Shown: one piece after another, positions 48,607 through 50,665 of the stretch
How positions within the stretch are numbered: position 1 is the first letter of the stretch
How the letters are laid out: each line of letters starts with the position of its first letter
NCBI RefSeq assembly: GCF_001476815.1
Contig: NZ_LDSL01000130.1
Span: 1 to 64,000 of the forward strand
Source of the DNA: Pseudacidovorax intermedius
GTDB lineage: Bacteria > Pseudomonadota > Gammaproteobacteria > Burkholderiales > Burkholderiaceae_C
Reading direction: 5' to 3'
Length of the DNA stretch: 64,000 nt
The notes under the pieces: model-generated
What the model saw: only the letters and a program-made list of their open reading frames with translations
Databases searched by the model: none
Told to the model about the DNA's origin: nothing
Made by a program: the position numbers and the translations under genes

Positions 48607-49962
48607 ATGAGTTGGTACAACAAGGTCGCATGGAGCGAAGGCCTGTTTCTTCGCCCCCAGCTGTTTCAGCAGCAGGAGCGTTACCTCGAGCATGTGGCGC
48701 ACCGCCGCGCGGCGACGCTGACTGCATTCTTCTGGGGCTTCAGCCATTTCGCCATCGACAGCGAATCGCTGGCGCTGGGCAAAGTGGTGCTCGCGGGCGC
48801 GAGTGGCGTCTTTGCGGATGGCACGCCGTTCGAGACACCGGCGCATGCGCCGCTGCCACCGCCCCTGACCATCCGGCCTGAGCACCTCGAGCAGGTCATT
48901 CATCTGGCCGTTCCCATCCGCATGCCCAATGGCGAGGAGACGGCATTCGAGGACCCAGGCAACGCGGGGACGTCGCTCGCTCGCTTCGCGGTCTTCGACA
49001 CCGAACTGCGTGATTCCAATTCCTTCGGCCAGGGCCCGAAGACGGTCCAGCTTTCGCATCTCCGGCTGCGCCTGCTGCCCGAGCGCGAACTTACCGAAGG
49101 CTGGATCGGCCTGCCGCTCGCCCGTGTCACGCAGATCCGCTCGGACGGCAGCATCGCGCTCGATCCCGACCTCATTCCGCCGGTGACGGGCTACGGCGCC
49201 AGCGGCCTGCTGACCGACTGGATCGTTCACCTGCATGGACTGTGCCGGCTGCGCGCGCAATCGCTGGCCCACCGTTTGACGGCCAGCGATGGCAAGGCGT
49301 CGCAGGCGGCCGAGGTTTCCGACTTCCTGCTGTTGCAGATCCTCAACCGCTACGAGCCGCTGCTGGAGCACTGGACGCTGGTGCGCGAAACCGCGCCGGA
49401 GCAGATTCACACCGCGCTGCGGATGATGAGCGGCGAGCTGTCGACCTATGTGCGTGGCGCGACGCGCCGGCCGGCCGTACTGCCGTCGTATGCGCATCTG
49501 CAGCCCTATGCGTCGTTCCGCCACCTCATTTCGGACCTGCAGTCGCAGCTCAACGATGTGCTGGTGCGCAGCGCGCAGAGCATCGCGCTGGAGCCGCGGC
49601 CCAACGGCGTGCGGGTGGCGAGCATCGAGCCGACGCAGTTGAAGGAATACGCGGCCCTGGTCCTCGCCGTGGCGGCGCACCTGCCCGCCGACCAGTTGGC
49701 CGCGCAGTTCGCGGCGCGCTGCAAGGTCGGGCCGAGCGACCGGCTGACCGAGTTGCTGCGCTCGCATCTGCCGGGTATCGCGTTGCAGGGCTTGCCCGTT
49801 GCGCCGCGCCAGATCCCGTTCAACGCGGGATTCGTCTACTTCCAACTCGACGGCAGAGGACCTTTGTGGGACCAGTTGCTCAAGTCGGGCGGCCTGGCGC
49901 TGCACCTGGCGGGTGAGTTCCCTGGGCTGCAGCTCGAGTTGTGGGGCGTTCGGGAGCGTTGA
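48607..49962 (+). CDS. tssK: T6SS baseplate protein TssK
   Basis: A 451-residue baseplate component that links the baseplate to the TssJLM membrane complex. The start MSWYNKVAWSEGLFLRPQLF is a hallmark, followed by QQERYLEHVAHRR and, near the C-terminus, IPFNAGFVYFQLDGRGPLW. Length is normal. It starts 30 bases after tssJ and is followed after 49 bases by the beta-helix gene, which is inserted between tssK and tssL. Confidence 0.96.
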   Translation: MSWYNKVAWSEGLFLRPQLFQQQERYLEHVAHRRAATLTAFFWGFSHFAIDSESLALGKVVLAGASGVFADGTPFETPAHAPLPPPLTIRPEHLEQVIHLAVPIRMPNGEETAFEDPGNAGTSLARFAVFDTELRDSNSFGQGPKTVQLSHLRLRLLPERELTEGWIGLPLARVTQIRSDGSIALDPDLIPPVTGYGASGLLTDWIVHLHGLCRLRAQSLAHRLTASDGKASQAAEVSDFLLLQILNRYEPLLEHWTLVRETAPEQIHTALRMMSGELSTYVRGATRRPAVLPSYAHLQPYASFRHLISDLQSQLNDVLVRSAQSIALEPRPNGVRVASIEPTQLKEYAALVLAVAAHLPADQLAAQFAARCKVGPSDRLTELLRSHLPGIALQGLPVAPRQIPFNAGFVYFQLDGRGPLWDQLLKSGGLALHLAGEFPGLQLELWGVRER

Positions 49963-50011
49963 TGGTCCGGCACCACGCTCCTCACGCCCGGTCGCAGCGC
50001 GGAGGCGGCGC

Positions 50012-50665
50012 ATGAGCACGCCCATCACGGCCATGGCCAAGGAATATGCCGTGCTGTCTGCCGGCGGCGGCGGCATCACCGTGGCTGGTGCCGACATGAC
50101 GCCCGGCATGTTCTCCGGCATCGCCTGGAGCGACATCAGCTTCGTCGACTGCGTCTTCGGGGGCGACGGCAATGTGGCCCTCGCGGCCATGAGCGGCTGC
50201 AAATTCATGAACTGCCGCTTCACCGGCCCGGACCACGATTTCGGCGTCATGACGGCGGTGAAGTTCATGGACTGCAGCAGCCAGGGCCGTTCGGTCTTCT
50301 GCGGCCGCGACGGCAGCAGCGATGTCCTGTTCCAGAACTGCAGTTTCAACGGCGGCTCAGCGGCACCGCAGTCTTTCCGCGGCATCGGCTGCACCGGCGA
50401 AGTCGTCTTTCGCAACTGCACAGGCAGCGGCGAGGTGCTGGTCGGAGGGACGGCCATGTCGCTGGAAGGCTGCCGCTTCTCGGACATGAGCTTCGCCATA
50501 GGTCGTCGGGCAGGGCGCGGGGCCCCGCTGGCGGCGACGCTGGTGATCGACGGCTGCCAAGGCAGCGGGCTCTGGCGAATGGTCGAGGGCCGCATGAAGA
50601 CCAGCCACATCCGCAACAGCCGTTTCGGTCGGATCGTCAATGACGGCTCCGAATGCGCTGCATGA
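50012..50665 (+). CDS. Cys-rich pentapeptide/right-handed beta-helix-like protein inside the T6SS cluster
   Basis: A 217-residue protein of no core T6SS family. It is built of short irregular repeats with a recurring aromatic-x-(D/N)-C-x-F pattern: SFVDCVF, KFMNCRF, KFMDCSS, LFQNCSF, VFRNCTG, LEGCRFSDMSF, LVIDGC. Eleven cysteines are present. This looks like a small beta-helix or pentapeptide-repeat-like solenoid. It has no signal peptide or membrane helix. ATG 50012 has a strong GGAGG site. It lies between tssK and tssL in the same direction and is likely co-expressed. Pentapeptide-repeat accessory proteins (TagAB type) are known in some Burkholderia T6SS clusters; whether this is one of them is inference. 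It could be a structural accessory, a regulator or a secreted cargo. Confidence 0.8.
   Translation: MSTPITAMAKEYAVLSAGGGGITVAGADMTPGMFSGIAWSDISFVDCVFGGDGNVALAAMSGCKFMNCRFTGPDHDFGVMTAVKFMDCSSQGRSVFCGRDGSSDVLFQNCSFNGGSAAPQSFRGIGCTGEVVFRNCTGSGEVLVGGTAMSLEGCRFSDMSFAIGRRAGRGAPLAATLVIDGCQGSGLWRMVEGRMKTSHIRNSRFGRIVNDGSECAA

What the first reader, a model, noticed from the sequence alone, without database searches (positions are those of the whole stretch)
50012..50665. Non-core Cys-rich beta-helix protein embedded between tssK and tssL
Seen: a 217-residue, 11-cysteine solenoid with repeating F-x-(D/N)-C-x-F turns, a strong ribosome site, same strand and tight spacing inside a T6SS operon. Known: core T6SS order does not need a gene here; pentapeptide-repeat accessory genes occur in some Burkholderia clusters. 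Inference: a lineage-specific T6SS accessory, regulator or cargo. The very even repeat and cytoplasmic look despite many Cys residues are unusual.
Basis: partly seen in the sequence, partly recalled or inferred. Interest (0 to 1): 0.62.

Follow-up and report, generated by a model that had tools for sequence, protein, structure and literature searches.

The report
Leaderless immunity-like solenoid in T6SS operon
A small beta-solenoid protein sitting inside a bacterial toxin-injection operon turns out to be a relative of the presumed antidote proteins for one of that machine's likely toxins, but without the export signal, which suggests that it handles the toxin inside the attacking cell before firing.

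Summary
In detail: 50012-50665 encodes a 217-aa, 11-Cys protein between tssK and tssL, predicted to be a solenoid. It is non-core: in 24 readable Variovorax loci of the same T6SS type the slot holds this gene in 8, nothing in 12, a vgrG in 4. Its relatives tell more. Its profile matches, over nearly its whole length (95-141 bits), the N-terminal half of predicted immunity proteins encoded behind T6SS effectors with a metallophosphoesterase domain, in unlinked vgrG modules; TvpB and TvpAB of the same genome reach only 16-18 bits. Those immunity proteins carry twin-arginine leaders; none was seen in 12 orthologues of our protein. A slot orthologue co-occurs with the effector (6 of 8 Variovorax slot genomes, 3 of 3 Pseudacidovorax; tree simulation about 0.002). 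The immunity genes also keep a start codon just behind the leader (22 of 23), as if they too made a cytosolic form. Best reading: a dedicated cytosolic, immunity-derived partner of the effector acting before export, as cytosolic Tli does for Tle in Enterobacter cloacae. Homology and lack of a leader are well supported; the activity is inferred and untested.

The parts
50012..50665 (+). P0001: leaderless 217-aa solenoid, homologous to the N-terminal half of predicted Metallophos-effector immunity proteins
50001..50005 (+). ribosome binding site GGAGG, 6 nt before the ATG
   Evidence: read
48607..49962 (+). tssK (baseplate), upstream edge of the variable slot
   Evidence: TIGR03353 437 bits
50725..52212 (+). 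tssL, long form with OmpA domain, downstream edge of the slot
   Evidence: TIGR03349 and TIGR03350
52230..56318 (+). tssM
   Evidence: TIGR03348 965 bits
60740..63394 (+). vgrG of the same cluster; 82% identical (685 of 838 aligned) to the VgrG of the unlinked effector module at G000:C254
   Evidence: the name rests on my reading and on similarity, no family scan was run on it

Best explanation
P0001 is a cytosolic (leaderless), stand-alone copy of the N-terminal half of an immunity-type protein. The family it belongs to consists otherwise of predicted periplasmic antidotes for T6SS effectors with a calcineurin-like metallophosphoesterase domain. SHOWN by sequence: homology over nearly its whole length, no visible leader, slot position, purifying selection, co-occurrence with the unlinked effector. 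INFERRED: because the exported relatives point to a periplasmic target for the effector, a protein that stays in the cytosol cannot be the shield against incoming toxin; it most likely binds newly made effector in the producing cell, as a holdase, folding/activation partner or loader, before the T6SS built from the same operon exports it. This would be the job that the cytosolic isoform of Tli does for Tle in Enterobacter cloacae, done here by a separate gene kept with the machine.
For: A profile of 12 orthologues hits all 12 compared relatives at 95-141 bits, against 16-18 bits for TvpAB/TvpB of the same genome; the top match spans model positions 4-207 of 218. 18 columns are invariant in 24 sequences, six of them Cys. 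In 6 of 7 loci checked by similarity a full-sized effector relative lies directly ahead of the immunity gene (in the seventh, L104, only a 69-residue piece of it), and Pfam finds Metallophos in the two effectors scanned. Leaders, judged by eye: twin Arg plus hydrophobic stretch in the relatives, none in 12 of 12 orthologues. Co-occurrence: 6 of 8 slot genomes against 2 of 93 others in 101 Variovorax genomes (p 6e-7); within the 25 genomes with this T6SS type 6 of 8 against 1 of 17 (p 0.001); Pseudacidovorax 3 of 3 against 2 of 12 (p 0.022); simulations on the TssK tree 8 and 9 of 5000. The effector module's VgrG is 82% identical to the window's VgrG. In the immunity genes 22 of 23 have an in-frame start codon at the leader/mature boundary (20 ATG; 7% of control 5-codon windows hold an ATG), and 17 of the 20 ATGs have a ribosome-site trimer 5-10 nt upstream against 26 of 115 control ATGs. 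Precedent: cytosolic Tli made from alternative start codons activates Tle (passages of PMC10294624, and PMC11470151).
Against: No physical or functional link between P0001 and the effector was tested. Two slot genomes (G383, G388) have no detected effector. Four effector genomes lack the gene: G314 has the T6SS type; G359 has no TssK match at E 1e-100; G071's best TssK is 42% identical; G302 was not searched for TssK. The supported-branch test of independent pairs has only 2 pairs and no power. G324 carries two orthologues beside Rhs fragments with neither this T6SS type nor the effector detected. If the immunity genes make their own cytosolic form, a separate gene would be partly redundant. 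P0001 starts about nine residues later than that internal start. The immunity function itself is a prediction from position, leader and tandem arrays.
Confidence: 0.45

Rival explanations
1. Machine accessory: an immunity-derived solenoid recruited as a cytosolic adaptor of this T6SS itself, binding TssK, TssL or the VgrG tip and helping assembly or regulation, with no direct tie to the Metallophos effector.
For: Position between tssK and tssL with short gaps; 70 invariant columns among the 12 orthologues, only 18 of which are shared by all relatives; pentapeptide TvpB is a known cytosolic accessory in Serratia (passages of PMC13373197); present without a detected effector in G383 and G388.
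Against: Absent from 16 of 24 readable loci of the same T6SS type in Variovorax, so not generally needed by the machine; presence follows the effector rather than the T6SS type.
Confidence: 0.25
2. Orphan immunity gene: what is left of an effector-immunity cassette that entered the tssK-tssL slot, now a cytosolic antidote against some toxin of competitors.
For: The slot is a place where vgrG modules insert (4 of 24 Variovorax loci, also G162 and G177); two orthologues sit in Rhs debris in G324, each behind the same unnamed ORF; orphan T6SS immunity genes are known in other bacteria (search listing and starts of abstracts).
Against: Conserved at full length and at a level like tssL in two genera with no effector remnant recognised beside it; a leaderless form would not guard the periplasm, where its relatives seem to be sent.
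Confidence: 0.22
3. Plain pentapeptide-repeat protein with an unrelated job (for example DNA mimicry as in Qnr/MfpA) that happens to sit in the operon.
For: Sub-threshold pentapeptide, Qnr and HalA hits; the profile of all 24 sequences finds AlbG at E 3.9e-6, HalA at 3.2e-5 and MfpA at 4.4e-5 in PDB; structural similarity to HetL and AlbG.
Against: Matches to the immunity family are far stronger; the slot is kept in two genera; structural similarity to solenoids is generic.
Confidence: 0.05

Closest known systems
Predicted Tat/lipoprotein immunity proteins of VgrG-DUF4123-Metallophos effector modules (unnamed family; example G000:C254, L016:8624-9865)
   Same: Common descent over residues about 4-207; predicted solenoid; six invariant Cys; P0001 starts about nine residues behind their internal start codon
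   Different: They have a leader and a further C-half of about 190 residues, and lie next to an effector; P0001 has neither and lies in the core operon
Tli of Enterobacter cloacae (cytosolic isoform)
   Same: Immunity protein present in the producer's cytosol without a leader, acting on the effector before export (for P0001 this is proposed)
   Different: Tli is encoded with a phospholipase effector and makes both forms from one gene; a passage of PMC11470151 ties such effectors to ankyrin-repeat partners; no sequence comparison was made here
TvpB / TagB pentapeptide-repeat T6SS accessory proteins
   Same: Cytosolic solenoid accessory linked to T6SS spikes
   Different: Encoded after vgrG with a DUF2169 partner (passages); the own genome has such a pair elsewhere (G000:C227), to which P0001 is only weakly similar
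TslA (AsaA) of Acinetobacter
   Same: Non-core T6SS accessory
   Different: Periplasmic and bound to TssM according to PMC10564176 (passages); P0001 has no visible leader

Membership tests
Pentapeptide-repeat proteins (Pfam PF00805, PF13599, PF13576) | score above the curated Pfam cut-off | tested here: inconclusive
   Window protein: 22.7 (cut-off 27), 16.3 (38) and 10.4 (20.2) bits, all below. Of two orthologues scanned, L005 is below all and that of G400 (L072) passes PF13576 with 31.2 bits.
Pentapeptide-repeat proteins (Pfam PF00805, PF13599, PF13576) | right-handed quadrilateral beta-solenoid | tested here: inconclusive
   Model is a solenoid; VIA-align HetL Z 15.7 (rmsd 2.9, 192 aligned), AlbG Z 14.1 (rmsd 3.5, 172 aligned), but pectate-lyase-type helices score much the same.
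T6SS immunity protein (cognate, periplasmic) | homologous to proteins encoded directly behind a T6SS effector | tested here: met
   that these are T6SS effectors is itself inferred from the vgrG and DUF4123 genes beside them
T6SS immunity protein (cognate, periplasmic) | own gene lies next to the cognate effector | tested here: not met
   Neighbours are tssK and tssL; the effector is on another contig
T6SS immunity protein (cognate, periplasmic) | export signal for the compartment where the effector acts | tested here: not met
   No leader seen in 12 of 12 orthologues, by eye; no signal-peptide program was available
T6SS immunity protein (cognate, periplasmic) | protects against the effector | not testable with these tools
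   needs an experiment
Tvp class III (TvpB/TagB) | encoded beside vgrG with a DUF2169 protein | tested here: not met
   DUF2169 matches in the own genome are on contigs C227 and C275 only, the window on C36; neighbours of P0001 are tssK and tssL
Tvp class III (TvpB/TagB) | sequence similarity to a TvpB | tested here: inconclusive
   P0001 profile against own TvpB 17.8 bits and TvpAB 15.8 bits; BLASTP of P0001 E 0.06 for TvpB and 3.6e-4 for a 71-residue piece of TvpAB: weak, as between solenoids in general
Works like cytosolic Tli (activation or loading before export) | cytosolic immunity-family protein in the effector-producing cell | tested here: met
   By sequence only: no visible leader, and effector present in 9 of 11 slot genomes on the tree
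Works like cytosolic Tli (activation or loading before export) | needed for effector activity or export | not testable with these tools
   needs an experiment
TslA/AsaA | periplasmic protein that binds TssM | tested here: not met
   No visible leader in P0001; binding not testable; periplasmic location of TslA from PMC10564176 (passages); sequences were not compared

The most novel reading that the evidence does not exclude
A two-compartment immunity scheme: a Tat-exported solenoid antidote whose genes keep an internal start for a cytosolic form, and a lineage that fixed the cytosolic form as its own gene inside the T6SS core operon, where it acts in trans as activator or loader of unlinked Metallophos effectors.
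Probability: 0.3. Interest if true: 0.75.

Novelty: new variant of a known kind. Interest (0 to 1): 0.52.

Why it matters
Immunity proteins are usually seen as shields only. One case (Tli in Enterobacter cloacae) shows a cytosolic form helping the toxin mature. This locus offers a possible second, independent case in another fold and another toxin class, and here the cytosolic partner appears to be a separate gene that can be deleted without touching immunity. That would let the question 'do immunity proteins also prepare effectors for export?' be tested cleanly.

Tried and rejected

Fusion evidence: in Variovorax J22G73 (L008, the same genome as G390) the gene runs on in frame. It looked like a fusion to TssL, but it is a deletion that joins residues 1-153 to the middle of TssM and removes tssL. 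It is a decayed locus and not evidence of interaction; it is still counted as a slot genome unless said otherwise.

Repeat similarity alone: rejected because of the bit-score gap between the immunity proteins and genuine pentapeptide proteins.

Independent-pairs test on the TssK tree: only 2 supported pairs, uninformative. The model simulation relies on the best tree, 14 of whose 33 inner branches are open, and takes G162 as effector-free because no relative of P0001 was found there; G162 was not searched with the effector itself.

Foldseek against PDB: 0 matches at E 0.001 or better, low TM-scores; VIA-align matches are generic solenoids. The modelled immunity protein (mean pLDDT 86.3) was not searched.

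Co-occurrence variants: counting G324 as positive p 1.8e-6; leaving out the decayed G390 p 5.7e-6; within the T6SS type without G386 (slot not readable) p 0.0013, without G386 and G390 p 0.003. Fisher tests take genomes as independent, which they are not.

N-half as the one variable half: true for the three tandem copies of G400, but in G390 the three pairs give 41/95, 43/45 and 72/45% (N/C), and the single copies L102 and L105 give 84/36%. Both halves are exchanged.

VgrG link: no comparison was made with VgrG proteins of the genome's other T6SS loci (TssK matches on C108 and C170), so 82% identity is not shown to be exclusive.

Literature: T6SS with metallophosphoesterase, immunity protein and effector gave 0 papers; with 'metallophosph' and toxin 4, none on such an effector by title or start of abstract; calcineurin-like or DUF4123 with T6SS effectors 75 papers, 12 listed; pentapeptide repeat with immunity protein 9, 8 listed, of which passages of PMC13373197 and PMC11481896 were seen; pentapeptide repeat with TssK 9, 8 listed, passages of PMC6335564 seen; twin-arginine with immunity protein 29, 10 listed; Variovorax T6SS immunity 35, 10 listed. 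All in one open-access library.

Full report
THE GENE. The ORF is as described: 217 aa, ATG at 50012, GGAGG six bases upstream, 49 bp after tssK and 59 bp before tssL, same strand, no promoter-like or terminator-like site between. tssK, tssL, tssM, tagF, a TagK-domain gene and tssE were confirmed by family models, and tssG just outside the window, cut by the contig end. tssH, tssB, tssC, hcp, tssJ, tssF and vgrG in the window are named from my reading. The genome belongs to the genus of two records titled Pseudacidovorax: the places of L005 and L006 coincide with G307 and G303, which are 'same genus'.

FOLD. AlphaFold2 with 24 aligned sequences gives a solenoid, mean pLDDT 84.2, pTM 0.86, with most of the first 19 residues poorly defined. 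Structurally similar solved proteins are HetL (Z 15.7, rmsd 2.9, 192 aligned) and many right-handed beta-helices at similar Z; Foldseek had no match at E 0.001 or better. The solenoid is supported, but the fold alone says little about function.

DISTRIBUTION. With P0001 as query, strong orthologues were found in 3 of 15 genomes of its own genus counting itself. Among 101 genomes of the genus of G215 there were 9 full-length genes in 8 genomes plus one truncated gene; I take this genus to be Variovorax because two named Variovorax loci coincide with its members. In an even draw of 299 family genomes only the window itself was a strong hit, three others having weaker relatives. In 399 order genomes the P0001 profile found, besides the window's genome, only distant relatives in 2 genomes.

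THE SLOT. TssK at 69% identity or more marks this T6SS type in 25 of 101 Variovorax genomes. Behind tssK I read: an orthologue of P0001 in 8 (G319, G340, G348, G383, G388, G390, G400, G402; truncated in G390), tssL directly in 12, a vgrG in 4 (in G314 and G325 the locus ends inside it), and one (G386) ends before the slot. In G319 and G340 a fatty-acid-hydroxylase gene also lies in the slot. In G162 and in G177 (own genus) the slot holds a vgrG. So the place is a cargo site, and P0001 is not generally needed by the machine.

RELATIVES. P0001 also hits contig C254 of its own genome, in two neighbouring genes. They lie behind a vgrG, a DUF4123 gene and a 1052-aa protein with a Metallophos domain. 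The first is a 414-aa protein whose start overlaps the effector's stop; the second stands behind a duplicate of the effector's C-terminal part and is frameshifted. Of seven further loci checked by similarity, six have a full-sized effector relative directly ahead of the immunity gene; in L104 only a 69-residue piece of it precedes three immunity genes. L103 (G400) has vgrG, DUF4123, effector and three relatives in a row. In G255 the relatives lie in chimeric frames and no effector was detected. I read these relatives as immunity proteins; this is inference from position, leader and tandem arrays. A profile of 12 P0001 orthologues finds all 12 compared relatives at 95-141 bits; TvpB and TvpAB of the own genome reach 17.8 and 15.8 bits. 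Across 24 sequences 18 columns are invariant, including six Cys. The relation is thus specific, beyond a general likeness of repeats, although a profile of all 24 sequences also touches pentapeptide proteins in PDB (AlbG, E 3.9e-6).

WHAT P0001 LACKS. By eye, the relatives have twin-Arg leaders, many with a lipobox, and about 190 more residues at the C-terminus. P0001 corresponds to the N-half alone and starts about nine residues behind their internal start codon. None of 12 orthologues shows a hydrophobic leader; that of G383 has no start codon at the aligned place, and its frame can begin at an ATG a few codons upstream, again without a leader. No signal-peptide program was run. In G400 three tandem immunity genes share 94-95% in the C-half but 42-47% in the N-half; other pairs show the opposite (84% N, 36% C), so both halves recombine. 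P0001 is under purifying selection (dN/dS 0.13-0.40 in nine chosen pairs).

AN INTERNAL START IN THE IMMUNITY GENES. Of 53 distinct open frames found in the loci by similarity, 9 lack the Trp motif by which I placed the boundary and were not examined; 32 have RR upstream of it. I dropped 6 of these, from a list of 8 loci with slot-type or chimeric frames, leaving 26, and 23 after removing near-identical N-halves; one of the 23 is the frameshifted gene of C254. 22 of 23 have an in-frame start codon within the five codons at the leader/mature boundary (20 ATG, 2 GTG), against 7% of control 5-codon windows with an ATG and 23% with any start codon. 18 of the 22, and 17 of the 20 ATGs, have AGG, GGA or GAG 5-10 nt upstream; among ATGs inside the mature parts it is 26 of 115 (p 1.5e-7). 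The sequences are related, so the p-value is too small, but the N-halves are diverse and come from three family codes (f1, f8, f32). A Gly of the lipobox lies at this place, so part of the signal may come from the protein. I take it as good but indirect evidence for a second, cytosolic product.

CO-OCCURRENCE. The effector is present in 8 of 101 Variovorax genomes (E 1e-20 or better) and in 5 of 15 of the own genus. Six of the 8 Variovorax genomes with P0001 in the slot have it, and 3 of 3 of the own genus (Fisher p 6e-7; 0.001 within the 25 genomes with this T6SS type; 0.022). On the TssK tree of 29 ingroup rows 11 have P0001, 10 the effector, 9 both; simulating either trait alone on the tree reaches 9 in 8 or 9 of 5000 runs. 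Supported branches give only 2 independent pairs, which is no test. The two genes lie apart (on different contigs, or far apart on one, in the genomes listed), so neighbourhood does not explain this. The module's VgrG is 82% identical to the window's VgrG, which makes export by this T6SS plausible; other VgrG proteins of the genome were not compared.

MECHANISM. If the effector acts in the periplasm, as exported antidotes suggest, a cytosolic relative is useful only on the sending side. In Enterobacter cloacae, cytosolic Tli made from start codons behind the leader is required to activate Tle before export (passages of PMC10294624, and PMC11470151). I propose the same kind of role for P0001: binding new effector in the cytosol, keeping it soluble or helping it mature, and handing it to the machine. 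Binding, activation and loading are all untested. Rivals are a machine accessory and an orphan immunity gene; the two orthologues in Rhs debris of G324 and the two slot genomes without a detected effector are the main points in favour of those.

KNOWN OR NEW. Orphan immunity genes (listing), pentapeptide T6SS accessories (TvpB; passages of PMC13373197) and a dual-location immunity protein (Tli) are known. In the searches listed under Tried and rejected, of which I saw listings and a few passages, I met no report of this family, of its internal start, or of an immunity-derived gene inside the tssK-tssL slot. I rate it a new variant of a known kind.

Noticed in passing
L008:7953-10073 (same genome as G390): In-frame deletion joining the first 153 residues of the P0001 orthologue to mid-TssM, with loss of tssL: a decaying T6SS in Variovorax J22G73.
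   Followed up: yes
L142:8007-8087 (G370): A 27-residue remnant of the P0001 C-terminus, on the opposite strand next to a broken tssK: a relic of a lost T6SS locus.
   Followed up: partly
L138:7710-8861 and L139:7171-8322: A membrane protein gene between tssK and the P0001 orthologue in two Variovorax genomes (PF04116 fatty-acid hydroxylase, scanned in L138); possible further slot cargo.
   Followed up: partly
L140:3905-4441 and L141:8009-8544: A 179-aa ORF without Pfam match stands before both P0001 orthologues of G324, beside Rhs fragments; intact in one copy, frame broken in the other.
   Followed up: partly
L017:3392-11320 (contig C36, mostly beyond the window end): DUF4123 gene, VasX_N effector and a run of ORFs several of which end in much the same way (GPEEPL[KR]WTP), the first with a sub-threshold DUF6708 match, between vgrG and tssG: a likely immunity array.
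   Followed up: no
L179:6352-10037 (G000:C227): DUF2169-pentapeptide TvpAB and a TvpB-like protein behind a vgrG-like gene: a Tvp class III type pair in the same genome.
   Followed up: partly
L103:7583-11965: Three tandem immunity genes with nearly identical C-halves and diverged N-halves; other pairs show the reverse, so halves seem to be exchanged by recombination.
   Followed up: partly
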